Source: an uncultured Ruminiclostridium sp. (lineage in GTDB: Bacteria; Bacillota; Clostridia; Oscillospirales; Ruminococcaceae). Taken from it: DNA of 64,000 bases. A model generated the notes under the pieces. That model was not told the origin of the DNA. It saw only the letters and a list, made by a program, of their open reading frames with translations, and ran no database searches. Below are positions 8,139 to 20,021 of this stretch, piece after piece. The stretch covers positions 1-64,000 of the forward strand of contig CANRGJ010000005.1 of assembly GCA_947630175.1 (NCBI GenBank). The letters are read 5' to 3'. The position numbers were made by a program, and so were the translations under genes. The first letter of the stretch is position 1. The number at the start of each line of letters is the position of its first letter.

Positions 8139-9146
8139 ATGCGAGCAAATAGAATTACATTTTATGACCGAGATGTTAAACTGTCAGCCTTTGAATTGCC
8201 TTCCCCGAAAGAAAATGAAGTGGTTATAAAAGTCAAGTATTCTTTAATATCGAACGGAACGGAAAAGGCGTGCCTTTCAGGTGAGCCGAATAGTGTCAAT
8301 ATACCGATGAGGTACGGATATTCATCAGTAGGCTACGTTGTTGAAACAGGAAAAAAAGTTACGTCAGTGAAGGCAGGGGATCGTGTTTTCGCAACCTATA
8401 CGGGTCATGCGAACTATGGCGTGCGTCCTGTTTCTAATGTTACAAAAATACCGGACGAGGTATACTTTGAGGATGCCGTGTTCGTGAAGATTGCTTCTTT
8501 CCCGCTTTTGGCATTGAGAAAAAGTCAATATGTACTCGGTGAATTGGTAGTCGTAGTGGGGACGGGGCTATTAGGTTTATTAGGCGTGAGGTTCGCATAT
8601 CTGTCCGGGGCTATGCCGCTGATAGCTATTGGAGGGAGCAGACAGGACAGGCTTGATAAGGCGAGAGAGTTCGGCGCAGATTATGTATTTTCCGCAAACG
8701 AGCCCGATTTAGAAAAGAAGATAATCTCTATCACCCAGAAGAGTACATTTCATAAGGGTGCGGAGGTGGTAATCGAAACGACAGGGCAGGAAAGCGCATT
8801 ATTTACGGCATTTAAATATGTCGGCAAGAATGCGAGAATAGTTATCAACGGGTGCAACAGAAGATTAAGCAAGCCAATAGATTTATACAATTCAGTTCAT
8901 ATAAAAGGAACCAGTTTGATTGGTGCAAACAGCAGCAACAGACCGTCCGGCGGTTCTATGCCGTTTAATTGGACGACCGCACGAGATTATAAATTGATAT
9001 TGGAATATATGAAAAACGATAAGCTTAATGCAAAAAGCCTTATATCTGAATACGCTGACCCAAATGACTGTGTATTGGTGTTTGAGAGATTGCTTAACGA
9101 CCGAGATTTCCCACTTGGAGTGGTGTTTGATTGGGATAAATTATAA
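8139..9146 (+). CDS. MDR family dehydrogenase (intact paralogue)
   Basis: A 335-residue medium-chain dehydrogenase and clear paralogue of the broken gene just upstream (shared LISNGTEKACL, YSSVGYV, VFVKIASFPLLALRKSQY, PLIAIG, GADYVFSA, ARIVINGCNRR, GVVFDWDKL). The Rossmann motif is VVVGTGLLGLLGV. It lacks the canonical catalytic-zinc GHE motif and the structural-zinc Cys cluster, so it probably works with NAD(P)H but without the usual zinc chemistry. A glycan-precursor oxidoreductase is the likely role, but the substrate is unknown. ATG 8139 follows tggaggttatta. The two copies suggest a tandem duplication with divergence. Confidence 0.8.
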   Translation: MRANRITFYDRDVKLSAFELPSPKENEVVIKVKYSLISNGTEKACLSGEPNSVNIPMRYGYSSVGYVVETGKKVTSVKAGDRVFATYTGHANYGVRPVSNVTKIPDEVYFEDAVFVKIASFPLLALRKSQYVLGELVVVVGTGLLGLLGVRFAYLSGAMPLIAIGGSRQDRLDKAREFGADYVFSANEPDLEKKIISITQKSTFHKGAEVVIETTGQESALFTAFKYVGKNARIVINGCNRRLSKPIDLYNSVHIKGTSLIGANSSNRPSGGSMPFNWTTARDYKLILEYMKNDKLNAKSLISEYADPNDCVLVFERLLNDRDFPLGVVFDWDKL

Positions 9147-9159
9147 GGAGATGTTATCT

Positions 9160-10029
9160 ATGGAAAAAAAGATAATACATATTTTTTGGACAGGAGGCAT
9201 GGACAGTACGCTTACTATGATAAAATACAGTCAAATCGAAAATGTAAGCATACTGCCGATATATGTTTCCAACGCTAACAGACGAAAGACCGAAAATTAT
9301 GAACTGGCTACCATTGGAAAAATATATGAAATATTGAAAAAAGACCCGCGTACAAAGGCAGAACTTCTGCCTGTCCGCATAATAGCCGACAGTAAGGAGC
9401 AGATACAATTTCCTTCTGAATTTCCGTATGAATGGGAATATTACAAGCGCAAAAGATCATCTGAAACTTTATCAATTATGCGTAAAACACAGGGCAAAAT
9501 TTACGATTTGCAGAAAAATAAAGCAAGGGGAATATGGGATTTAAATATTATCCGAATAGCAAATCAGTATATGCCCGTAATGACTTATGTAAAAACGGAA
9601 AACGTGATAGCTGAATTGAGTTTAAATTATGACGAATCGATATTTAGATTCCCTGAGTTATACACTGCATACGAAAAACAGTATGACGGTTTTTCCAGAA
9701 CGCTTTTTGATGAAAACAACACGGATCCCGACATATATGCTGTATTTAAAAATATTTCTTTTCCCTTATATAAGATGAAAAAGGTGGATGTATATAATGC
9801 GTATGCCGATATGGGTTATCAGCATATCCGCAGTATGCTTTGGCATTGTTATGCGCCGATCAACGGCCGCCCCTGCGGACAGTGCATTACCTGTGTTCCT
9901 TATATTCGTGAAGGAATGTATGATATGTTTGATCGTGACGCGCTTATAAGATATATTAAATTCTGCGACAGGGAAAGAGAAATCATAAACAAACAGTATC
10001 AAGAGCTGATATCCAAGCGGGGGGGGTAA
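9160..10029 (+). CDS. QueC-like PP-loop ATPase with C-terminal zinc motif
   Basis: About 289 residues. The N-terminus IFWTGGMDSTL (residues 8-18) is a PP-loop (SGGxDS type) that binds ATP and adenylates a substrate. Near the C-terminus is a four-Cys set, C230-x8-C239-x2-C242-x2-C245, as in 7-cyano-7-deazaguanine synthase (QueC), which turns a carboxylate into a nitrile. At 289 residues it is longer than typical QueC (about 220-230), and the middle (YYKRKRSSETLSIM, VMTYVKTENVIAELSL) does not look like QueC. No queD, queE or queF is nearby, so a glycan-linked amidation or nitrile function is more likely than queuosine synthesis. ATG 9160 is chosen because aaggag (9145-9150) is 9 nt upstream; ATG 9151 is too close. 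The gene ends in a G8 tract (10019-10026) just before TAA. Confidence 0.75.
   Translation: MEKKIIHIFWTGGMDSTLTMIKYSQIENVSILPIYVSNANRRKTENYELATIGKIYEILKKDPRTKAELLPVRIIADSKEQIQFPSEFPYEWEYYKRKRSSETLSIMRKTQGKIYDLQKNKARGIWDLNIIRIANQYMPVMTYVKTENVIAELSLNYDESIFRFPELYTAYEKQYDGFSRTLFDENNTDPDIYAVFKNISFPLYKMKKVDVYNAYADMGYQHIRSMLWHCYAPINGRPCGQCITCVPYIREGMYDMFDRDALIRYIKFCDREREIINKQYQELISKRGG
10019..10026 (+). repeat. G8 homopolymer at the 3' end of the QueC-like gene
   Basis: Eight consecutive G encode the last Gly residues before TAA. With nine G the frame would read past the stop for about 30 more codons, ending at the TGA near 10121. Confidence 0.9.
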
Positions 10030-10126
10030 TCAAGAAACAGTACTTATATACTTACCTTTATTCGTTTGATTTTCTGCCGTTAATGCTGTTGTGCTATTAT
10101 ATAGGTTCAAAAAGTACAAGCTGACT

Positions 10127-10350
10127 TCACTTTAACATTGAGGGAGCTATGTTGTACAATTGAGTAAGCTTAAAGTATGAATGAAATGTATACTGAAAAC
10201 CTTGGTCGCTGTGGAGCGGTAACTCTGCGGCGATCTTTTCTTTTTTCTTGGCTGCACGAATAGTAAAAAATACAAGTTCAACGTTCTGCTCAGTCCCGGT
10301 CATGCAGACAGCTATACTGTTATCAAACAGATCCCGTATAACAGATATAT
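10127..10350 (-). pseudogene. IS3-family transposase (OrfB) remnant
   Basis: On the minus strand the reading frame gives LYISVIRDLFDNSIAVCMTG and, later, LPLHSDQGFQYTFHSYFKLT followed by NIAPSM. This is the classic rve/DDE core of IS3-family (IS150-like) OrfB, including the HSDQG motif with the second catalytic Asp. Only about 75 codons remain: the first catalytic Asp region, the final Glu region and OrfA are not seen, and no terminal repeats could be identified. It is a decayed mobile element at the junction between the glycan cluster and the invertible element. Confidence 0.75.
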
Positions 10351-10457
10351 ACAATGCCTGTCAAGCCGGATGTGTACTGCAAGGACATTGATGATCCGTC
10401 ATAGCAAATGCCTCCTGCCATACAGTCTGCATATATGGCAGAAAAATTAACCCCTTG

Positions 10458-10496
10458 ATGAAAAACGGAACAGTTTGATACTGTTCCGTTTTTCAT
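10458..10496. terminator. Bidirectional hairpin terminator
   Basis: A perfect 16-bp stem (10458-10473 with 10481-10496) around a 7-nt loop, with an A-run in the left arm and a T-run in the right arm. It sits just downstream of the minus-strand XRE gene and would also stop transcripts leaving the glycan cluster. Confidence 0.85.
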
Positions 10497-10506
10497 ATTC
10501 TGACGG

Positions 10507-10740
10507 TCATTTTACGTTATCGGGGTAAGGCTCTCGGCAGTCGGTAATGCCAAGCAGATAATCGGTGCTTGTGTGGTAGAATTCAGCAAGAAAAATCAGC
10601 TTTTGCAAGGGAATTTCAGTTGTTCGCAGCTCATAGCGTGAGTAAGTTTGCTGAGAGCAGCCAATATTTTTTGCCATTTCTTCCTGAGTTCTCTTGGATT
10701 CCTCGCGTAGCTCACGCAAGCGCAGCTTCAGTTCCTTCAC
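10507..10740 (-). CDS. XRE-family HTH regulator
   Basis: A 77-residue Cro/CI-type DNA-binding protein. The helix-turn-helix reads RTQEEMAKNIGCSQQTYSRY (residues about 18-37), followed by the typical IPLQKLIFLAEFYHTSTDYL and LLGIT ending of small XRE repressors. The GTG at 10740 is chosen because gaggtgat lies a few bases upstream; the longer ORF N-terminus has no RBS. Its leader region (10741-10887) carries a palindrome, TACTCAAT-A-ATTGAGTA, which may be its own operator. It is in the path of the outward promoter of the adjacent invertible segment in the present orientation. Confidence 0.85.
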   Translation of the reverse strand: MKELKLRLRELREESKRTQEEMAKNIGCSQQTYSRYELRTTEIPLQKLIFLAEFYHTSTDYLLGITDCREPYPDNVK

Positions 10741-10839
10741 TCTGATCACCTCAAAATGGTATATTGTACTCAATAACTGAACGCCAAGCCGTCCAACGGG
10801 CAATTTACGTTTTCATCTGCGAATATTTCTGTTGCAGCG

Positions 10840-10856
10840 TACTCAATAATTGAGTA
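10840..10856. promoter_or_regulatory. Putative XRE operator palindrome
   Basis: A perfect 17-bp palindrome, TACTCAAT-A-ATTGAGTA, about 100 bp upstream of the XRE start. A partial copy (TACTCAATAACTGA) is at 10767-10780, closer to the gene. Two similar sites in the leader of an XRE gene suggest autoregulation; this is inference. Confidence 0.5.
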
Positions 10857-10887
10857 AAATATAATATAGTGCAACCTAATTCAGTGT

Positions 10888-10918
10888 ATTTCGCAAAAGA
10901 GGAAATTTTGAGAAGCGC
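10888..10918 (+). repeat. Left inverted repeat (31 bp)
   Basis: Begins ATTTCGCAAAAGAGGAAATT and ends GAGAAGCGC. It is identical to the reverse complement of 12196-12226. Confidence 0.95.
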
Positions 10919-10968
10919 TATAAAAATCTCCTCAAAACATAGACACCTTTTTATACAGCCTTTGTATA

Positions 10969-10997
10969 ATCATAACACGCTGTTTTCGTATTGTCAA
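10969..10997 (-). promoter_or_regulatory. Outward-facing promoter inside the invertible segment
   Basis: On the minus strand the -35 box is TTGACA (10992-10997), the spacer 17 nt and the -10 box TATGAT (10969-10974). It is near-consensus for the housekeeping sigma factor. It reads leftward through the left repeat to the XRE gene as assembled. If the segment flips, it would read rightward into the adhesin operon. A + strand TATAAT at 10965-10970 overlaps it and may serve the recombinase, with a weak TAGACA 19 nt upstream. Confidence 0.75.
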
Positions 10998-11074
10998 GAG
11001 AAATTTCTAAAAAAAGAGAATTGGAAGTAAACTTTCTTGTTGAAAGTTGTGCAAAATATACAAGGAGGATTATT

Positions 11075-12157
11075 ATGTCGAGATCAAATGCTTATCACCG
11101 TAAGGACGGTCGCTGGGAGGGAAGGATCCCGCAGGGAAAAAGCGATGATGGTAAGCAAAAATTCCGGTATATATTCGCCCGGTCGAAAGAGGAAGTGCTG
11201 CAAAAAATGGAGGAAATCTACCTGCGTGACCGTTCCGCTGAAAGCTGCTGCAAGACGCTTCATACCGTTTTTTCGGAATGGTTTAATTTGACAAAACATC
11301 GTATCAAGGAGTCCACAGCCGCAAACTATGCCATGAAGGCGGACAAGCATATTCTCCCCGTTTTCGGAGAAAAGTCTATCAGTAGTATTACGCAGGACGA
11401 CGTCTGCGCTTTCATTGCCGACAAGCAGAAATCGGGCTTTTCTGAACGATATATTGCCGATATTGTTGTTCTGATGAAGAGCATTTTTAAATACGCCGTT
11501 GCTTCTTACCATATTTTTAACCCGCTGGACAGTCTGCGGCTGCCAAAGAAAAAAGGCGTGGAGATCCTGCTTCTTGACAAAGAGGAGCAGGAACAGCTGC
11601 AAGCCTATATTTCCAACAATTGGAATCACGGTACGCTCGGCACAGCTCTTTCCGTTTCAACAGGTATTCGTATCGGAGAGCTTTGCGCCCTGCAGTGGAA
11701 GGATATTGATCTTGAAAAACGGATTTTGACCGTCAGAAAAACGATGCAGCGTATCCAGACGTCCTCGGATACAGCAAAGACAAAACTCATCATAACCGAC
11801 CCGAAAAGCGAATCTTCACGCAGAAAGATTCCGATTCCTGACTGTATGATGAGTTTTTTGCTGAAATTCAAAGAAAACTCTGATGATTATGTGCTAACCG
11901 GATCAAGTAAACCTATTGAGCCGAGAACAATGCAGTATCGTTTCAGAACGATCCTGAAAAACGCAAATTTGCCGTCAGTTCATTTTCATGCTTTGCGGCA
12001 TATTTTTGCCACGACCTGTATCAGGCTCGGCTTTGACGTCAAATCCTTGAGTGAACTTTTGGGGCACAGCTCAGTTGAAATCACGCTGAATCGCTACGTT
12101 CATTCATCTTTTGAACAGAAGCAGGCGTATATGAAACAAATTGCCTTTCATTTTTAA
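11075..12157 (+). CDS. Tyrosine recombinase (Tn916 Int-like) inside the inverted repeats
   Basis: A 360-residue phage-type integrase. The N-terminal domain (SNAYHRKDGRWEGRIPQGKS, about 3-55) resembles the arm-type DNA-binding domain of Tn916-family integrases. It is followed by a SAM-like core-binding domain (about 60-160) and a catalytic domain with R199 (TGIRIGELCALQW), H305-x-x-R308 (HALRH), H331 (LGHSS) and nucleophile Y341 (NRYVHS). The full catalytic set is present, so the enzyme should be active. ATG 11075 is preceded by aaggagg. An upstream in-frame extension lacks an RBS. Its position inside the 31-bp repeats suggests that it inverts its own segment. No excisionase is seen. Confidence 0.9.
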   Translation: MSRSNAYHRKDGRWEGRIPQGKSDDGKQKFRYIFARSKEEVLQKMEEIYLRDRSAESCCKTLHTVFSEWFNLTKHRIKESTAANYAMKADKHILPVFGEKSISSITQDDVCAFIADKQKSGFSERYIADIVVLMKSIFKYAVASYHIFNPLDSLRLPKKKGVEILLLDKEEQEQLQAYISNNWNHGTLGTALSVSTGIRIGELCALQWKDIDLEKRILTVRKTMQRIQTSSDTAKTKLIITDPKSESSRRKIPIPDCMMSFLLKFKENSDDYVLTGSSKPIEPRTMQYRFRTILKNANLPSVHFHALRHIFATTCIRLGFDVKSLSELLGHSSVEITLNRYVHSSFEQKQAYMKQIAFHF

Positions 12158-12195
12158 AAAGTTGATAGCATGAAAAATGAATAAACACTGTACAG

Positions 12196-12226
12196 GCGCT
12201 TCTCAAAATTTCCTCTTTTGCGAAAT
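12196..12226 (-). repeat. Right inverted repeat (31 bp)
   Basis: Begins GCGCTTCTCAAAATTTCC on the + strand. It is the perfect reverse complement of the left repeat and lies 39 nt after the recombinase stop codon. Confidence 0.95.
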
Positions 12227-12357
12227 TGCATATAGAGCATGATTTACGCAAAGTAAATTGCGTTGCGCATATATAGCCTTATTGTACCCAATTCACGAGA
12301 TAAAATGCAACTTTTTCTGCAAGTATGTGCGGAAAGCTGTGAGGGAGCGTGCATATT

Positions 12358-15012
12358 ATGAAAGAAATTACGAAAAGATTTATCGCAGGAGTATCGGCGG
12401 CGGCACTGTTTGTGTCTGCGGTTGGTTCTGATGTGTTTACAAATTGGTTAGCAAGAACTGTATTTGCGGATTCTTCAACTGGTAAAAACGGCAGATCAAC
12501 GGGATTTTCCAACCTTGAACAGGATACAGATGGTGAATACTATAACACCGGCTACGGTCTGCACACGAACAAGACTGCCACGGCGCTGGACGACGGCAGA
12601 ACGTTTGACGTGAATCTGGAGTCCTGGTATGTGGGCGAGAACCCCGTGGACGTTGCAACGATCCTTGACGCTTCGGGTTCAATGGCTTGGACAGTGGATA
12701 CGCTTGAACCGTTGACGGTCAACATTGATCAAATTGAAGCAAAGAAATTAGACCCTATTGAAGAGAAATATGGCTTAGACGACGATGGTTTAAATAGTTT
12801 TGAGAAATTGCTTACATTCCAAGAAAGTCAAGGCGGCTACCTTCCCCAAGACCTTGTTGACCTGATACTTGACCCCGCCAAGACCGACAACAGTAAGCTG
12901 GGCTATGACAAATACATGTATTACGTCTACGAAGCACGCTCGTCCGTTTCTGAGTTTGTTCCACTGGGGTATTGGGACGGCGGTGCTGATCCGAAAACCG
13001 ATCTTTCTCTTATCGGTTACTATCCATTCAGCGGCACATTGGAGAATAAAGCGCCGAATGCGGAAGAAGACGCTGCGGGTAAACTGATAAATCACCCTGG
13101 AAGCGATGGGATTTATGACACGAGCAAAGAGGCAACAGAGCCATTAAAGGCTGTGTTTGTTACAGAAGAAGTGACACAAAAAGATGGAACAAAAAAGACA
13201 GTTGTTAAAGGCTTAAACATTGCCGATTCTTCTTCCAAAGGTGCAATTTTAGTTGCAAGCCCGACAACAAATAAATTCAGCATATCATTTGAATTGTCGG
13301 TGGATAATAGTAATAGTGGCTATGACGAGGCAACTATTCTTTATCTTACCGACGGTACAAATTATTATAAAATATTCCGTGGCGGAAATAGTTCCGGATC
13401 AAGATTGAAAATGTCAACAAATAAAGATTCACCATTGAATGCAAATAGTGCTGTGAATACAGAACCGAGAGAATGGAAATTTACCTTTGATTTTGATAAA
13501 AAAGAATTAACGATATATACGACTACAAAAAATGTAAAGTGGACAAATGATGATACCGGTAAAGACACATATACCGTTGATTTGTCCAAATATCCCGAAC
13601 TTGATGTAAGCAAACTTAAAATCTACATTGGCGGCGATACCACAGAACATAAAAATCAAAATACTATATATATAAAAAACTTAATCATTAATGATATAGA
13701 AGGTGAAACAGAAACAACGGTCGCAAATTATCCTCTTCAGACAGAGGAAAACGGTTTAAAAAATACCACAAATTCTGATAATCCTTCTATCTTTGTAGAA
13801 CAAGCCTATAATAGCGGCGGCAATTTTGGCACAAAAGAACTTTCTCTTAGAACACTTGACCCCGTATTTAAATCAGACAATAAGGCATTAGACGTAAAAA
13901 ATACCTCTCAAAATGGCGCAGTACTGCTTGACGCTGTGCCGGAGCTTGACGAAAACGGCTTTACTATCTCTATGAAATTGTATAGAACAGGAACTCTTAA
14001 AGAAAGCCAACAAAATATTTTTTACTTAGGTGATAAAGATAAAAGCAAAAACTATTATCAGTATTTCCGTTCAATGAATGCCGGAGGTTATTTAGGTATT
14101 TCTAAGAGTGAGCAAAAAGATTTGGACAAAACTCCTACTGGGACTGATATGGTTTACTATAAGGGCGGTATGGCTTCAGGTTTAGATGAAAATGAGGTAT
14201 GGTATACAAATACTCTTGTATTTAAACCTGATCCGGATAATGATGATAAATGGATAGTCACACCTTACATAAACGGTAAAGCAAAGTATCAAGACGGTGC
14301 TAAAAATTTTTCAATAGATAAAATAACTGTAAATAAAAGTAACCTTGTTCTTTTACTTTGCGCATTAAAGAAAAACGGCAGCGGCTCAGACCAATACCTC
14401 GACGACCTCTACATCTTCAACGATGCGCTCAATGCAACGCAGGTTGCGCAGTATTTTGGAGAAAAAGAGCTTTGTGACGGATCGACAAAAGATAAAGATG
14501 GCAATGTAACTAAAGCGCTTTACCATGCGACAACTATTGATGGCGAAGACATTGCACAAATCAGTGATAGTCTGGCAAATAACACTAAAAGTGATGAGCG
14601 CCGTGGTTGGTACTACGTCAATTCCCACTCCACATGGGCAGACATTGAAGGCTGCCTTGCAAGCGGCAAGCAGTATATTGGTATTAAAAAAGATGATGGC
14701 ACAGACTATTACAGCCCTGAGGATATTGTCACAAAACCGTCCGGAATGGACCCGAAACTTAAAGATGATATAGAAAATAATTATGAAAATAATACATCTA
14801 TTACTAAGCACGCAGATTATGTTGCGCCGACAACCGAGCGCAGTATACGCTTCTATGTCGACGGACAGAAACATTTGCGCTGCTTTGTATGGAGTGGAGC
14901 CGATTCAAAAGAAAACGACCCTCGCACATTCTGCTCGCTTGTGTACGAAAAGAGAGAAAAAATGACAAAACAATGCAAAAAACCAAATACGAAGAACTCA
15001 ACAGTGCGCTGA
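12358..15012 (+). CDS. Giant VWA surface adhesin, N-terminal part (frameshifted at 14955-14960)
   Basis: ATG 12358 (RBS gagggag, 10 nt) starts a signal peptide (MKEITKRFIAGVSAAALFVS, cleaved near VFADSS). Residues about 65-110 begin a von Willebrand A domain with the MIDAS motif DASGSM (104-109). The VWA fold is then interrupted by a long insert with two LamG/concanavalin-like beta-sandwiches: about 220-370 (LSLIGYYPFSGTLENKAPNA) and about 455-695 (TVANYPLQTEENGLKNTTNS). Such inserts occur in pilus-tip adhesins. The frame is lost in an A6 tract at 14955-14960. The last ~18 codons, up to 15012, are out of the true frame. One extra A joins it to the next ORF and gives a roughly 2240-residue protein. 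Confidence 0.8.
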   Translation: MKEITKRFIAGVSAAALFVSAVGSDVFTNWLARTVFADSSTGKNGRSTGFSNLEQDTDGEYYNTGYGLHTNKTATALDDGRTFDVNLESWYVGENPVDVATILDASGSMAWTVDTLEPLTVNIDQIEAKKLDPIEEKYGLDDDGLNSFEKLLTFQESQGGYLPQDLVDLILDPAKTDNSKLGYDKYMYYVYEARSSVSEFVPLGYWDGGADPKTDLSLIGYYPFSGTLENKAPNAEEDAAGKLINHPGSDGIYDTSKEATEPLKAVFVTEEVTQKDGTKKTVVKGLNIADSSSKGAILVASPTTNKFSISFELSVDNSNSGYDEATILYLTDGTNYYKIFRGGNSSGSRLKMSTNKDSPLNANSAVNTEPREWKFTFDFDKKELTIYTTTKNVKWTNDDTGKDTYTVDLSKYPELDVSKLKIYIGGDTTEHKNQNTIYIKNLIINDIEGETETTVANYPLQTEENGLKNTTNSDNPSIFVEQAYNSGGNFGTKELSLRTLDPVFKSDNKALDVKNTSQNGAVLLDAVPELDENGFTISMKLYRTGTLKESQQNIFYLGDKDKSKNYYQYFRSMNAGGYLGISKSEQKDLDKTPTGTDMVYYKGGMASGLDENEVWYTNTLVFKPDPDNDDKWIVTPYINGKAKYQDGAKNFSIDKITVNKSNLVLLLCALKKNGSGSDQYLDDLYIFNDALNATQVAQYFGEKELCDGSTKDKDGNVTKALYHATTIDGEDIAQISDSLANNTKSDERRGWYYVNSHSTWADIEGCLASGKQYIGIKKDDGTDYYSPEDIVTKPSGMDPKLKDDIENNYENNTSITKHADYVAPTTERSIRFYVDGQKHLRCFVWSGADSKENDPRTFCSLVYEKREKMTKQCKKPNTKNSTVR

Positions 15013-18000
15013 ATACGTTCTACAAAAATCTTGCAGATTACTCCGACCTTTCAAACACCTCGGTCGTTCGTTTCAGCACGATAAATGCGGTGGACAAAGA
15101 TAAAGAGGAGACTACAAATACAAATTTGCAAAAACTCATCATGAGAGACTGGACGAACTGGTCGGATTATTATCAGAAAGTGAAAACTGAGGATTCGTCG
15201 GCCACACCGAATACCGATAATTATTTGCACGATCTTCTTATACCGGAAACTGATGAAGAAAAGTCTACGGATACCATAGTTTCAACGGCGCGCGGTGACG
15301 AAATATTAGAATACCCCTATGTCATGACCGGCGGTACATATACATGGACGGGCTTGAAATCCTTCTATGATAATATGGTAGACAAGGACGGCTTGGAAAG
15401 CGGCGACAAGGTTTACGACATAGCCAACGACGCCCGTGATAAGTATCTTATCATCTTCACAGACGGTCGTGATAATACTGTTGGTACTACTGATACAAAA
15501 TATAACGAGAAATATTCTCCGGAAGATCATAAGGCTGATAATGACGCAGGGTTAGCAAAAGCATGGGCAGATCAGCTCAAAGACGAGGGCTACACGATTT
15601 ACTGCGTAATGTTGGCAACAGGTTCAATTTCAGAGGATACAAATGAAGACGAATTCAAAAGTGCAAAAAATTTCTTGTTGACTCTTGCCGGAACTTATAA
15701 TGCGGAAGAGCTGAAAGCTGATTATCAAAAGCAGTTGGCCGAAGAGGAGGCAAAGAAAGACGGAGGTGGAGAAAAACCAGATGAAAAATTAATGGAGTAT
15801 TTGACAGAGCAACTTGAAAAACTGGAAAATGATCCGGAAGATCACATCATTGTTGTTGACCCGTCAAAAACAAAAGACGGCGGCGTCACTGTTATAGACG
15901 CATTCCAGCAGATCCTTGATGATATTCAGCAGCCTCGTAATGATTACAATGTGCAGGACTATATTGACCCACGCTTTAACCTTGTTGACAAAAACGGAAA
16001 TTTGTATCAGCTTGGCGCAGGCGGAAAAATAACGATAAAAAATTCCGCTGGTGGTGTAAGCACAACAACTGTTGGAGATATCATTGACAATCCGAGTGCA
16101 TACGGTTATCCATACACACCGCAGGACAGCTATATGGTAAACCGCAAGACAACTTCAGATCCAAAATCTGAGGACGGTTATGACTGGGGCGACGGCTACG
16201 GCACAGGCTATATCTATTACGACGATGAAAAAGATATGTACTATCTGCGCTGGGAAGATCAGGTTATCCCAATGGAAGATGAAGCGTTTACCACAACTAA
16301 GGAAAATGAGCACTACCTTGACGTCTGGAGCGCAACCATTCGCCTGAAAGCAAAAGACGATTTCATTGGCGGCAACAACATCCTCACCAACGGAAACGAG
16401 GCAGGCGAAAACCTCGTTTACAGCGATGCGACTATTGAGAATATGGATAAGAACCCCGACTTGTATTTTGCGGATTATAAAACAGGAGATACGATTACAT
16501 ACCGCAAAAAGCTCGAAGTTCTCTCCGGCACAAACCGAAAGATCAATGCGGTTGATGCGAACGGCGTTTCGCAGGCGGTTTATGGTGATGGAATAGACAT
16601 TCCGTCATCGGGATTTCCAAGAGTAACTGTAAACGTCAGATTGAAGCCCCTTGATGCAAAAAATCTGAATGACGTGATCTATATGGGCGAAGTCGTGTCC
16701 CCGACTATGATGCTTGCCGATCTTGAAAACGGCTATATGGAAGGTTCATATTATTTGGAGTATCTAAGGCGATATGCTTATCGGCTTTATGGTTACGAAG
16801 CTGCACAAACTCCTCTCCTTGAACTTTTGAATCAGTGGCTGAAGATCAATGATAAAGAGGTGGCGAAAAAAACATTTACAATACCTTATATTTATCTGCC
16901 TGAACCAATTTATAAAGATGATGGTACACTTGAAACGGTTAACGTCGCTGGTAAACGAAAAGTTTCTGTAACAAACAGCACGGGTGTGAGTACCGAAGAA
17001 TCCGAAGGATTTATTATAACAGATTTTGATGACCTGAACTTGTGTGATATTACAGGCTTTATTACTTATACTTGGAAGCGTGAAGATAAACAAGAACCGC
17101 AGCAGGCAATAGAGGGTCAACCCGGTAAATATGACATCACCAAAGAATATGTTGTCAAGAATACGGAGCAGATCAAGTACAATCTGCAATTGAAGTTTAC
17201 TCCGCTGAAAGAAGATGATTTGCCTGAAGGTTTCAAGTTTGATGAAATTTTCATTAAATCGGATTCAACGGGCAAAGGCGGTGATAAATTCTTTAATATT
17301 GCAGATAATGAATTTGCTCCTGCTGATACATGGAGCATAGAATCTAACCGCACAGATTACCTTCAAGCAATGGTAAAGGAAGAAAAAACCTACACGCCGC
17401 ATGTTGAGTACAATAAAGATACTGAAAAGTGGCAATTATCGACTGAAACTACCGGCACTGAGAAAATCAACGAAGACACATACGATTGGGATACTTCTTA
17501 CAAGCCGGTTGTAGGCAAAGTGCAGATAGAAGGTGATAAGCTGGATGAATATTACACAGACACGCTTAATAATGTTGGTTTCGCTGACAAAGACGGCAAT
17601 ACGATTACCGATGAGACAGGTGCATTCATAACAGGTAAAAGTGATACAGATGTATGCTCACTCGTAGCCAACACCACCTACATTAAAGACGTTGTCAACG
17701 GTGCTCTTGTGCTGGAACTTGTGGTGGACGGAAAGTATCTTAAAGATGGTTCACCAATTGTTACAAACGGTACTTACACCTTTGAAGCCACACGTTACTA
17801 TGACGACCCGTATGACCCGTTACCGTATAGCGCTGATGAAAAGAATATGAGCGCAGATACAACACCAGACGGTAAAAAATATCAGCTGACATTCAAAGTT
17901 GATAGTAAAACCCTGCCAACATCTCCAGAGAATAATACGCTCTATACGGTCTGGGCGACATTGACTAAGGTTGAGGTGTTTGACGGTACAACATATAAGT

Positions 18001-19079
18001 CTATTACATCGGACGGCTACGCTGTTGAAAATGCTCTCCCAATTGGTACTTATGAGATTTCGGTAAATAAGACGGATATGAAAGCTTCTGGCTCTCAATA
18101 CTATCTCGGAAAAAATGATATCGGTGCAGATGTAAACTTCATCTACCTGAAAACCGACAACGCGCCTGCAAGCTACACCTACGACAAATTTCCCGACAGC
18201 GTTTACAATGCCAGTAAAACGGCGCCTGAAAGCACAGGCGACGGCGAGTATCTTATTAAGAACGGCGAAAATGACAATGCTCCGAAGAATATCGCTGACA
18301 GCAACAGAACAAATGTTTCCGAAACTCAAACATTGACATTTTATTTCGGTACTGTGGACAACAAAGAAATCAACGGAGAGACACTGAAAAACACAAAAGG
18401 CTATAGCAGATTTGACGATAAAAGTAAAGACTATGCCAAAGACCGTCTTGGAATTATACTGCTGTCCGTTGACCCAAACAGCCTTGCGATTTCAAAAATG
18501 GTGACGAATACTGACAAGAAAGAGAATTTTGAACATTCGTGGGAATTTACCATTATTTTCAAGCCGGATGATGGAGAAAATAAAGAAGAATTTGACACGC
18601 AAAATAAAGACGGCTTTACATTGACATGGTATAAACTTGAAGACGGCAACTGGACTTTAGATAAAAGCAGCGGTCACGAATCAATTATTAAATTTGATCC
18701 GGAAAGTGGCGCAACCGAATATAAAGCAACAATCAAATTGAAACACGGCGAAAAAGTCGTGATCAGCGGTCTGCAAGAGGGCAAATGGCAAGTAACCGAA
18801 AAAGACGAAAGAGGAACGATCTTTTATTCCGCCCACAACAACATGGACGAATTTGATGATTATGTATTTTCCAACGAGACAAACGAGGATATCGTATTAA
18901 ATCCCGCGTCTCACGTTGATTTCGTCAACGAATTTCCATACGAGCTCCCCTCCACAGGAAGCATTGGAATAAACCGATATATCTTCTTCGGCACAATGTT
19001 TGCAATTGCTTCTGCCATATTCGTTGCAATGCTATGGTACGATCGGAGAAAGCGCAGGACGACGAATGAACAGCCGTAA
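14889..19079 (+). CDS. Giant VWA surface adhesin, C-terminal part with LPSTG anchor
   Basis: The correct frame resumes near 14958. The first ATG of this frame, at 14889, has no RBS and precedes the break, so separate translation is doubtful. The sequence continues the VWA domain (KYEELNSALNTFYKNL, then YLIIFTDGRDNTV and YTIYCVMLATGS). Next come long beta-rich regions and Cna-B/DUF7601-like domains (for example ISKMVTNTDKKENFEHSWEF, near 1180-1330). It ends in a sortase signal: LPSTG (about 1353-1357), a 20-residue hydrophobic segment and a basic tail DRRKRR. The likely role is a wall-anchored tip adhesin assembled by the adjacent sortase. The sortase gene overlaps its end by 14 nt. Confidence 0.8.
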   Translation: MEWSRFKRKRPSHILLACVRKERKNDKTMQKTKYEELNSALNTFYKNLADYSDLSNTSVVRFSTINAVDKDKEETTNTNLQKLIMRDWTNWSDYYQKVKTEDSSATPNTDNYLHDLLIPETDEEKSTDTIVSTARGDEILEYPYVMTGGTYTWTGLKSFYDNMVDKDGLESGDKVYDIANDARDKYLIIFTDGRDNTVGTTDTKYNEKYSPEDHKADNDAGLAKAWADQLKDEGYTIYCVMLATGSISEDTNEDEFKSAKNFLLTLAGTYNAEELKADYQKQLAEEEAKKDGGGEKPDEKLMEYLTEQLEKLENDPEDHIIVVDPSKTKDGGVTVIDAFQQILDDIQQPRNDYNVQDYIDPRFNLVDKNGNLYQLGAGGKITIKNSAGGVSTTTVGDIIDNPSAYGYPYTPQDSYMVNRKTTSDPKSEDGYDWGDGYGTGYIYYDDEKDMYYLRWEDQVIPMEDEAFTTTKENEHYLDVWSATIRLKAKDDFIGGNNILTNGNEAGENLVYSDATIENMDKNPDLYFADYKTGDTITYRKKLEVLSGTNRKINAVDANGVSQAVYGDGIDIPSSGFPRVTVNVRLKPLDAKNLNDVIYMGEVVSPTMMLADLENGYMEGSYYLEYLRRYAYRLYGYEAAQTPLLELLNQWLKINDKEVAKKTFTIPYIYLPEPIYKDDGTLETVNVAGKRKVSVTNSTGVSTEESEGFIITDFDDLNLCDITGFITYTWKREDKQEPQQAIEGQPGKYDITKEYVVKNTEQIKYNLQLKFTPLKEDDLPEGFKFDEIFIKSDSTGKGGDKFFNIADNEFAPADTWSIESNRTDYLQAMVKEEKTYTPHVEYNKDTEKWQLSTETTGTEKINEDTYDWDTSYKPVVGKVQIEGDKLDEYYTDTLNNVGFADKDGNTITDETGAFITGKSDTDVCSLVANTTYIKDVVNGALVLELVVDGKYLKDGSPIVTNGTYTFEATRYYDDPYDPLPYSADEKNMSADTTPDGKKYQLTFKVDSKTLPTSPENNTLYTVWATLTKVEVFDGTTYKSITSDGYAVENALPIGTYEISVNKTDMKASGSQYYLGKNDIGADVNFIYLKTDNAPASYTYDKFPDSVYNASKTAPESTGDGEYLIKNGENDNAPKNIADSNRTNVSETQTLTFYFGTVDNKEINGETLKNTKGYSRFDDKSKDYAKDRLGIILLSVDPNSLAISKMVTNTDKKENFEHSWEFTIIFKPDDGENKEEFDTQNKDGFTLTWYKLEDGNWTLDKSSGHESIIKFDPESGATEYKATIKLKHGEKVVISGLQEGKWQVTEKDERGTIFYSAHNNMDEFDDYVFSNETNEDIVLNPASHVDFVNEFPYELPSTGSIGINRYIFFGTMFAIASAIFVAMLWYDRRKRRTTNEQP
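14955..14960 (+). repeat. A6 tract at the adhesin frameshift
   Basis: GAG AGA is followed by six A. Seven A would keep the upstream frame going into the downstream ORF. It is not a standard heptameric -1 slippery site, because the downstream codon in the upstream frame is ATG. Confidence 0.8.
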
Positions 19080-19953
19080 AATATTGCTGCAATGGGAGAG
19101 ATTTCATTGCGGCAATAGAGAAGAAAATACGAAGCAGCGAATTATTCTGCTTTCGGCGTTTTTATTTCTGATAATAGGCTTATCTCTCATTTTGATTTAT
19201 TCGATCACGTTCTGCCATAATGAAACCAAACAATATCAAGCGGTAAAAGAGTATATCGCTGCTGCGGAAAAAGTACCGAATACAGCGGATATGCTGAAAG
19301 AAGCAGAAAGCTTCAATTCCGGGTTAAGCAATATTGAACCAATGCCGACGTATCTTCCGAGGGAGCTGCTTCCTGAGTACAGCTCTTGTCTGGATATTTT
19401 GAATGGTATGATAGGTTATATCAGCGTCCCTGATGAAGGCATTTTACTGCCGATATATCACGGAGCAGATGAGAAAACTATGCAGAATGGCGCAGGACAC
19501 GTTGAGGGCAGTTCTTTCCCGATCAACGGCAGCTCCGTCCATTCTGTCATAATAGGACACAGAGCATTGCCCTCTGCAAGAATGTTTTGTGACCTTGGCC
19601 GAGTAGAAAAAGGTGAGAGATTTACGGTTTACGTTCTCAACAGTTCCTTTACATATCAGGTCTATGGTATTGAAACCGTACTGCCTAATGAAATACAATC
19701 CTTGTTGATTAAGGAAGGAAAAAACCGCTGTTCTCTTGTGACCTGCACGCCATACGGCAGCGAGTCTCATAGGCTTTTGATCCATGGTGAGCTTATCGAT
19801 ACGGCCGGATCGGACAGAGATTCGGCATTGAAAGCGGCAGAAACGCGCCTGTGGATCTATCGGGCAGTTATCGCCGTTGAGATTATTCTTATAGTAACTG
19901 TGGCTATCCTTGCATACAAGGTAATATTCAAATGCGAGAACGATAAAGGATAG
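19066..19953 (+). CDS. Class C sortase
   Basis: A 295-residue membrane sortase: N-terminal membrane segment about 25-48, catalytic domain with H165 (SVIIGHRALP), C227 in the VTC motif (CSLVTCTPYG) and the downstream Arg of SESHRLLIHG, then a second membrane segment about 262-285. Two flanking membrane segments plus an N-terminal lid-like stretch fit pilus-type class C sortases. These link LPxTG proteins to each other or to the wall. ATG 19066 overlaps the adhesin gene by 14 nt, so the two are translationally coupled, and the adhesin is the obvious substrate. Confidence 0.9.
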   Translation: MNSRKILLQWERFHCGNREENTKQRIILLSAFLFLIIGLSLILIYSITFCHNETKQYQAVKEYIAAAEKVPNTADMLKEAESFNSGLSNIEPMPTYLPRELLPEYSSCLDILNGMIGYISVPDEGILLPIYHGADEKTMQNGAGHVEGSSFPINGSSVHSVIIGHRALPSARMFCDLGRVEKGERFTVYVLNSSFTYQVYGIETVLPNEIQSLLIKEGKNRCSLVTCTPYGSESHRLLIHGELIDTAGSDRDSALKAAETRLWIYRAVIAVEIILIVTVAILAYKVIFKCENDKG

Positions 19954-19971
19954 ACTCTATAAGCAAACCGC

Positions 19972-20021
19972 AAGCCCTCATAAATGACATACAAGCGTTT
20001 ATGAGGGCTTATTTTTGTTTT
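19972..20021 (+). terminator. Rho-independent terminator after the sortase
   Basis: A perfect 13-bp stem, AAGCCCTCATAAA (19972-19984) with its complement at 19998-20010, followed by ATTTTTGTTTT. It closes the adhesin-sortase operon. Confidence 0.85.

What the first reader, a model, noticed from the sequence alone, without database searches (positions are those of the whole stretch)
10888..12357. Putative Hin-like invertible promoter switch driven by a tyrosine recombinase, aimed at a giant adhesin
Seen: perfect 31-bp inverted repeats at 10888-10918 and 12196-12226 enclose a complete tyrosine recombinase gene, and just inside the left repeat a near-consensus promoter (TTGACA-17-TATGAT, minus strand, 10969-10997) faces outward. 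Now it points to the XRE gene at 10740. If inverted it would point at the adhesin-sortase operon whose start is 12358. No comparable promoter is visible between 12227 and 12357. Known: Salmonella hin-fljBA and many gut invertons use this plan. Inference: the window shows the adhesin-OFF state, and the XRE regulator is expressed in that state, giving two-way control.
Basis: partly seen in the sequence, partly recalled or inferred. Interest (0 to 1): 0.85.

Follow-up and report, generated by a model that had tools for sequence, protein, structure and literature searches.

The report
Self-flipping promoter cassette controlling an adhesin
A gut bacterium carries a 1.3-kb DNA segment that holds both a promoter and the enzyme predicted to flip it, which would switch a giant surface protein on or off; relatives carry similar segments in both orientations and beside different kinds of genes.

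Summary
Perfect 31-bp inverted repeats enclose an intact Tn916/Tn1549-type tyrosine recombinase and a strong extended -10 promoter pointing outward, now at a small XRE gene. Relatives turn the guess into a well-supported switch. In L050 the homologous cassette lies reversed between homologous flanks, with breakpoints at the repeats; in L051 the adhesin flank shows the same. Two contigs of one MAG (L064/L065) show one locus both ways round. Each repeat holds a core site, TTTCGCAAAA-N7-TTTTGCGAAA. Of 70 non-identical recombinase loci tested, 47 have a recognisable site on both sides when only half-sites are scored. Spacers match left to right in 42 of 47 (6/7 in 4, 2/7 in 1) but average 2.3/7 between loci, as expected of tyrosine-recombinase overlap sequences. 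An outward promoter of at least 10/12 lies inside 44 of those 47. Related cassettes in Oscillospiraceae and a few Lachnospiraceae adjoin adhesins, capsule or glycosyltransferase operons, a BREX locus, a type VII-like locus and others. The enzyme class is not Hin's. XRE as a second output is plausible but unproven. The adhesin reading frame is broken in this window. No reads were available, so flipping within one strain is not shown.

The parts
10888..10918 (+). left inverted repeat (recombination site; core 10889-10915 = TTTCGCAAAA-GAGGAAA-TTTTGAGAAG)
12196..12226 (-). right inverted repeat (recombination site; core 12199-12225, same 7-bp spacer)
10969..10997 (-). outward extended -10 promoter TTGACA-17-tgtTATGAT, now facing XRE
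   Evidence: conserved in relatives
11075..12157 (+). tyrosine recombinase (Tn916/Tn1549-type integrase family), 360 aa, inside the invertible segment
10507..10743 (-). XRE/HTH_3 regulator, 78 aa, on the promoter-facing side in this orientation
   Evidence: homologues of at least 65% identity beside 7 of 30 cassette loci
10840..10856 (.). palindrome TACTCAATAATTGAGTA, probable XRE operator between the left repeat and XRE; the only exact copy in the genome
10458..10496 (-). 17-bp-arm hairpin just beyond the XRE stop, probable terminator of the XRE-side transcript
12227..12357 (+). adhesin leader with ribosome site, no promoter found; sequence conserved in relatives of both orientations
12358..15012 (+). 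first part of the giant LPXTG surface protein (signal-like N-terminus; DASGS motif of a VWA-like domain, read by eye; no Pfam match)
14889..19079 (+). second part of the same surface protein in another frame, ending in an LPSTG sorting signal (read by eye; no Pfam match)
19057..19953 (+). class C (pilus-type) sortase

Best explanation
10888-12226 is a self-contained invertible promoter cassette. The tyrosine recombinase encoded inside it binds the half-sites TTTCGCAAAA/TTTTGAGAAG in each repeat and exchanges strands across the identical 7-bp spacer GAGGAAA, inverting the whole 1.3-kb segment (inferred from family knowledge and comparative evidence). The strong outward promoter then faces either the XRE gene (the orientation in the window, adhesin OFF) or the adhesin-sortase operon (ON). 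Shown here: the anatomy, the existence of both orientations among relatives with breakpoints at the sites, and conservation of sites and promoter. Inferred: that this copy still flips, that transcription follows orientation, and that the XRE transcript matters.
For: (1) L050 carries the cassette (79.8% identical in the same orientation, 43.2% reversed as control) between swapped flanks: the window's XRE side matches L050's other side at 77.9% (46.3% on the same side as control) and the adhesin side at 73.3%. L051 is flipped on the adhesin side (63.2%); on its other side only a short stretch next to the site aligns and no XRE was found. L049, L052 and L074 lie as in the window. (2) L064 and L065, two contigs of one MAG, are the same locus at 94-96% identity in opposite orientations, alignment blocks switching within the sites. 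(3) Half-site-only scan: 47 of 70 non-identical loci have both sites at 14/20 or better; spacer identity 7/7 in 42, 6/7 in 4, 2/7 in 1; between loci mean 2.30/7, 7/7 in 7 of 1081 pairs. After removing copies at least 90% alike: 41 of 64, 7/7 in 36, 6/7 in 4, 2/7 in 1; between loci 2.27/7, 7/7 in 2 of 820. (4) Outward promoter of at least 10/12 in 44 of those 47 and at least 11/12 in 34; inward at least 11/12 in 1; mean of letter-shuffled sequence 8.2; 38, 29 and 1 of 41 without near-copies. (5) R199, K244, H305, R308, H331 and Y341, which fit the recalled catalytic set, are invariant in 28 aligned recombinases. (6) In the same genome three related cassettes sit beside glycosyltransferase/GLF operons, one facing the operon and two facing strong hairpins.
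Against: No read data: inversion within one strain was not seen, and the flipped copies are from other species or from a MAG bin that may mix strains. The adhesin frame is broken in the window, so flipping ON would not give the full-length protein from this assembly. No clear promoter for the recombinase itself was found (best inward match 7/12). 23 of 70 loci did not reach the site threshold on both sides; 5 of these 23 still have 7/7 spacers, 15 are distant relatives (36-44% identity), but 8 are 48-56% identical and still fail, the own-genome cassettes L004-L006 among them. Among the 47 that pass, L059, L119 and L123 lack an outward promoter of 10/12, and L055's 10/12 match is not convincing. 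L052, an adhesin locus, lacks the promoter and the left site in the 149 bases its contig holds before the recombinase; its homology to L074 breaks off there, perhaps a contig-end artefact.
Confidence: 0.92

Rival explanations
1. The repeats are the ends of a small transposon or integrated element whose integrase moves it; orientation differences reflect independent insertions.
For: The recombinase is closest in solved structures to 'Int protein' chains 6en0/6emy/6emz, recalled as the Tn1549 integrase, and related cassettes sit beside many different genes.
Against: No target duplication at the ends. Adhesin leader and XRE flank are the same DNA on the two sides of the flipped L050 and the unflipped copies, which independent insertion would not readily give. 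Inverted, not direct, sites predict inversion and not excision. Spacers match within a locus but not between loci. Empty sites in relatives were not searched for.
Confidence: 0.04
2. The segment once inverted but this copy is frozen or decayed.
For: The target reading frame is broken here. A second cassette in the same genome next to an intact 2253-aa paralogue has a recombinase split into two ORFs and only a weak outward promoter (read by eye).
Against: The window's recombinase, both sites (31/31 identical) and promoter (11/12) are intact, and the nearest relative L049 differs from the window's repeat by one base, carried on both of its arms alike.
Confidence: 0.12
3. The switch is two-way: in the OFF orientation the promoter expresses XRE, which then represses the target, the recombinase or its own gene.
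For: XRE homologues of at least 65% identity lie beside 7 of the 30 loci L049-L078, in all 7 transcribed away from the cassette; with the window the promoter faces XRE in 5 of 8 and faces away in 3. Palindromes near XRE are exact in the window and L049 and present with 2-3 mismatches in L050, L056, L064 and L065.
Against: XRE seems to have its own promoter overlapping an operator in L050, L064 and L065 (read by eye). The only exact operator copy in the genome is the one upstream of XRE, so no site at the adhesin leader was shown. No palindrome at that threshold in L063 and L066, while L077 has a 3-mismatch match away from XRE that looks like chance. L051 and L053 have other genes on that side. 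The weak homologue in L077 lies on the same side as its capsule operon.
Confidence: 0.4

Closest known systems
Salmonella hin-fljBA flagellar switch
   Same: recombinase gene inside the invertible segment (PMC5903667 passage) and an outward promoter in it (recalled); alternative transcription depending on orientation
   Different: Hin is a serine recombinase acting at hix, with Fis contributing (PMC11868660 passage); here a tyrosine recombinase with 10-7-10 core sites; no Fis-type enhancer was looked for
Providencia stuartii fimbrial invertible segment (PMC5903667, section 13 read)
   Same: putative invertible segment of 844 bp that encloses a recombinase ORF, beside surface-structure genes
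   Different: 14-bp imperfect repeats, Gammaproteobacteria; the recombinase was not compared here
Streptococcus zooepidemicus SZO08560 invertible promoter (PMC2654543, passages read)
   Same: Gram-positive LPXTG surface protein under an invertible promoter with a recombinase gene adjacent
   Different: about 115-bp segment with 10-bp repeats; the recombinase gene lies outside it
Clostridioides difficile RecV / cwpV switch (PMC2784873, abstract and passages read)
   Same: Clostridial surface protein, tyrosine recombinase
   Different: 195-bp segment without promoter or recombinase; recV is elsewhere; model based on a terminator in the OFF transcript
Gut inverton group 139 with invertase group 35 (PMC11892184, section 8 and passages read)
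   Same: invertons mostly of Clostridia with nearby tyrosine-type recombinases
   Different: repeat motif and enclosure of the recombinase not stated in what I read; could be the same or another family (not tested)
Tn1549/Tn916-type integrases
   Same: same integrase domains; best PDB match 6en0 at 7e-16 (transposon name recalled)
   Different: no conjugative or other transposon genes inside the 1.3-kb cassette; sites are inverted

Membership tests
invertible promoter switch (inverton) | promoter between two inverted repeats | tested here: met
invertible promoter switch (inverton) | both orientations exist between the same flanks | tested here: met
   between species: L050 (both flanks) and L051 (adhesin flank) versus window; and L064 versus L065 in one MAG; not within one strain
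invertible promoter switch (inverton) | reads or PCR showing inversion in one population | not testable with these tools
   no reads available
invertible promoter switch (inverton) | target expression depends on orientation | not testable with these tools
   needs RNA or reporters
tyrosine recombinase | integrase domain and catalytic residues R-K-H-R-H-Y (set recalled) | tested here: met
   Pfam; R199, K244, H305, R308, H331, Y341 invariant in 28
tyrosine recombinase | inverted half-sites around a 6-8 bp overlap that must match between partner sites (rule recalled) | tested here: met
Hin/Gin-type serine DNA invertase | serine recombinase catalytic domain | tested here: not met
   the three Pfam matches are all phage-integrase-type domains
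Hin-type layout | recombinase gene and outward promoter inside the invertible segment | tested here: met
transposon | target-site duplication at the ends | tested here: not met
sortase-assembled pilus/adhesin operon | LPXTG protein next to a class C sortase | tested here: met
   class C sortase above cut-off; LPSTG read by eye
sortase-assembled pilus/adhesin operon | shown polymerisation or adhesion | not testable with these tools

The most novel reading that the evidence does not exclude
The cassette is one copy of a portable phase-variation module that has been coupled, in Oscillospiraceae and Lachnospiraceae, to many kinds of target (pilus-type adhesins, capsule and glycosyltransferase operons, LytTR regulators, a type VII-like locus, BREX). 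It often has two outputs: target on one side and an autoregulated XRE, a terminator or a second target on the other. The XRE, with operators next to the recombination site, feeds back on the switch as a directionality or bias factor.
Probability: 0.25. Interest if true: 0.78.

Novelty: new variant of a known kind. Interest (0 to 1): 0.6.

Why it matters
In Bacteroides fragilis one master recombinase inverts many regions (PMC5903667 passage), and in C. difficile RecV acts from a distance (PMC2784873 passage). Here the promoter, the recombinase and both sites travel as one 1.3-kb unit, and most copies have their own 7-bp spacer. That would let several switches in one genome flip independently, and it makes the partner of each site predictable from sequence. 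It gives a ready search rule for phase-variable loci in uncultured Clostridia, including a BREX defence locus, and a compact natural part whose recombination can be tested in a laboratory strain.

Tried and rejected
Rfam over 9000-20000: no match at gathering thresholds. RNAalifold on the adhesin leader from 8 sequences: no pairs, although the leader sequence is conserved. XRE operator as a genome-wide regulon: one exact copy; the 5 others have 3 mismatches, as many as the reversed control pattern gives (5). Transposon reading: rejected, see rivals.

The spacer comparison is not affected by a swap, the promoter test is; re-orient them. In one search L006 and L022 found another position on one side; L006 has 7/7 spacers. 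The promoter pattern had a spacer one base too long; one search is the right one. The terminator scan missed the C4 hairpin and picked a different C6 one; both are seen in the folds.

Rows used and left out: one search took 73 fetched loci and dropped 3 duplicates, leaving 70 (the window; 27 of the 49; 17 of the unnamed-genome loci; 25 of 28). Left out beforehand as partial, duplicate or more distant: L052, L060, L076 and L079-L097, L020 and L035-L048, L003 (the window itself) and L007-L019; matches listed without a locus were not examined. So the 70 are a hand-picked set of closer relatives. One search repeats the count without near-copies (64). In one search, 28 recombinases entered the tree: L063 was dropped because my coordinates were out of frame; L066 was not included (its recombinase is split into two ORFs). 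Of that tree's labels, 'T7SSlike' for L054 and L061 was a guess that Pfam did not bear out and 'XREpair' is not a target class, so I use only the adhesin and capsule rows.

Literature: nine searches in the held open library; I saw the listings (some cut: 20 of 24, 15 of 16, 20 of 71) and passages or sections of five papers. Nothing I saw describes this cassette family in Ruminococcus or relatives, but subscription papers are mostly not held, so novelty is judged on that library only.

Full report
What is there. The window belongs to a 2.70-Mb genome in 46 contigs. A search of 71 genomes of its genus found the recombinase at 95% identity in one other genome, the next best match in another genome being 53-54%; that copy is identical over 4080 bases to L049, from a MAG titled uncultured Ruminiclostridium sp.. 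Repeats of 31 bp, identical and inverted, stand at 10888-10918 and 12196-12226. Between them lie an intact 360-aa tyrosine recombinase at 11075-12157 and, 50 bp inside the left repeat, a minus-strand promoter TTGACA-17-tgtTATGAT. Outside on the left is a 78-aa XRE gene (10507-10743, minus strand) followed by a strong hairpin at 10458-10496. Outside on the right, after a 131-bp leader without a recognisable promoter, comes the large LPXTG protein and a class C sortase.

Natural inversion. A scan of the collection of 84,980 species genomes with six peptide patterns gave 49 relatives of the recombinase. The adhesin homologue was placed beside the cassette in six of the 30 loci L049-L078: L049, L050, L051, L052, L053, L074 (which also showed L020, the same DNA as L049). 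With the window and the own-genome paralogue L101 that makes eight adhesin loci. In four the adhesin lies beyond the recombinase stop, away from the promoter end (window, L049, L052, L074; in L052 promoter and left site were not found in the 149 bases before the recombinase that its contig holds). In three it lies on the promoter side (L050, L051, L101). In L053 an adhesin lies on both sides, and the repeats extend to 181 bp, into both leaders. For L050 the cassette aligns at 79.8% in the same orientation (43.2% reversed), while the window's XRE flank aligns with L050's opposite flank at 77.9% (46.3% on the same side) and the adhesin flank at 73.3%. The blocks change over at the repeats. For L051 the adhesin flank aligns at 63.2% on the swapped side. 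L064 and L065 are two contigs of one MAG; cassette and both flanks are 94-96% identical with the flanks exchanged at the sites. This may be two strains or two copies, not necessarily one clone.

The recombination site. Reading each repeat from outside to inside, the consensus over 32 of 34 cassettes is TTTCGCAAAA-N7-TTTTGCGAAA (L033 and L068 did not fit a 7-bp spacer). Because repeats found by left-right identity are biased towards identical spacers, I repeated the search by scoring only the two half-sites on each side separately. In one search, 32 of 44 loci had 14/20 or better on both sides, with spacers 7/7 in 28, 6/7 in 3 and 2/7 in 1. In the larger, re-oriented set, 47 of 70 passed, with 7/7 in 42, 6/7 in 4 (one of them because of an N) and 2/7 in 1 (L068), against a mean of 2.30 between loci. 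Without copies at least 90% alike it is 41 of 64: 36, 4 and 1, against 2.27. L064 and L065 differ by one spacer base and each carries its own version on both sides. Identical overlaps within a pair and free overlaps between pairs is what strand exchange by a tyrosine recombinase demands (general rule, recalled). The 23 loci that failed include 15 distant relatives (36-44%) and 8 closer ones; this is not a claim that every homologue is a switch.

The promoter. In an alignment of nine upstream regions, TTGTCAAGA (the reverse of the -35) and the -10 are among the best-conserved stretches outside the site and the ribosome site; L052 lacks them. In the 47 loci with both sites the best outward match is at least 10/12 in 44 and at least 11/12 in 34, mean 10.8; the best inward match averages 8.5 and letter-shuffled sequence 8.2. 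Those below 10 are L059, L119 and L123. L055 and L059, beside LytTR response regulators, have only 72 and 32 bp between site and recombinase and are probably built differently.

What else the family is attached to. Genes next to cassettes include CpsB/CapC capsule operons (L077, L078, on opposite sides), a Wzz-type protein (L066), glycosyltransferase and nucleotidyltransferase operons on the two sides of L067, YukD and ThiF genes of a type VII-like locus (L070), dockerin proteins (L051, L056), a DegT-type aminotransferase (L064/L065), and a BREX locus with BrxA, BrxB and a fragmented BrxC (L063). For some neighbours (L054, L061) no family was established. In the recombinase tree of 28 rows the seven adhesin cassettes form one clade (98/93) and the six capsule or glycosyltransferase rows need at least two changes; two of these six (L077, L078) sit on long branches, so target exchange is likely but not firmly shown. 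In a sample of 247 genomes of the window's family, 35 have a match at 1e-70 or better. In this genome three more cassettes (contigs 6, 9, 4) have the outward promoter TTGACA-17 with extended -10; their sites fall just below my threshold but have 7/7 spacers. One (contig 6) reads into a second recombinase gene and a UDP-galactopyranose mutase gene. The other two read into strong hairpins within about 50 bp of the site while the operon lies on the other side.

The XRE gene. Homologues of at least 65% identity lie beside 7 of the 30 loci L049-L078 (L049, L050, L056, L063, L064, L065, L066), in all seven transcribed away from the cassette; two weaker ones lie at L073 (36%) and L077 (28%, on the same side as the capsule operon). 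Several of the 30 have short flanks, so absence is not always informative. With the window, the promoter faces XRE in five and faces away in three. A palindrome TACTCAATnATTGAGTA stands between site and XRE; exact in the window and L049, with 2-3 mismatches in L050, L056, L064 and L065, and not found at that threshold in L063 and L066. It occurs exactly only once in the genome. So XRE probably controls itself; whether it also acts on the switch is open.

State of this copy. Recombinase, sites and promoter are intact and the orientation is OFF for the adhesin. The adhesin frame is interrupted, whereas relatives and the paralogue have an open frame there; assembly error, a mixed population or true loss cannot be told apart here. 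The paralogue on the same contig (L101) has the opposite constellation: an intact 2253-aa protein on the promoter side, sites with identical spacers (TAAGGTA, 16/20 each), but a recombinase split into two ORFs and a weak promoter (read by eye). It looks locked ON unless another recombinase serves it.

Relation to what is known. The layout is that of hin; the enzyme is not. Segments that enclose a recombinase are known or predicted elsewhere: the Providencia stuartii 844-bp segment (PMC5903667, section 13 read) and Hin itself (passage). Promoter inversion before an LPXTG protein with an adjacent recombinase is described in S. zooepidemicus (PMC2654543, passages). C. difficile RecV works from a distance (PMC2784873, passages). 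The gut survey PMC11892184 links an inverton group of mostly Clostridia to a tyrosine-type recombinase group (section 8), which may overlap with this family. I therefore file it as a new variant of a known kind: a tyrosine-recombinase inverton that carries its own recombinase and recurs as a family with locus-specific spacers.

Noticed in passing
window 12358-15012 and 14889-19079: The giant surface protein is split between two reading frames, while L049, L051, L052, L053, L074 and the own paralogue L101 have an uninterrupted frame over that stretch.
   Followed up: partly
L101:8973-17143 (own genome contig 5): A second giant surface protein (2253 aa, Laminin_G_3) beside a related cassette, on the promoter side, with the recombinase split into two ORFs and matching spacers: possibly locked ON.
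   Followed up: partly
L098, L099, L100 (own genome contigs 6, 9, 4): Three cassettes beside glycosyltransferase/UDP-galactopyranose mutase operons; a second tyrosine recombinase gene lies first beyond the site on the operon side, so it might be expressed mainly in the ON state. One copy is ON, two OFF against hairpins.
   Followed up: partly
L004 and L005 (contigs 6 and 9): Two of these loci share the same 7-bp spacer TTTATTC, so recombination between loci, with large rearrangement, is conceivable.
   Followed up: no
L063:2857-7516: A cassette whose promoter side faces BrxA-BrxB-BrxC of a BREX defence locus, with the XRE gene on the other side; BrxC is in fragments.
   Followed up: partly
L053: Surface-protein genes on both sides of one cassette with nearly identical leaders: a possible either/or switch between two surface proteins.
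   Followed up: partly
L067: Glycosyltransferase- and nucleotidyltransferase-type operons lie outward on the two sides of the cassette, another possible either/or switch.
   Followed up: no
L055 and L059: Cassettes beside LytTR response regulators with almost no room for an internal promoter; promoter-like sequence lies outside the site and points in (read by eye), so these may work differently.
   Followed up: no
window 12281-12312: A conserved stretch (ATTGTACCC.ATTCACGAGATA.AATGCAAC) in the adhesin leader of both orientations, with no RNA family match and no predicted consensus fold; function unknown.
   Followed up: partly
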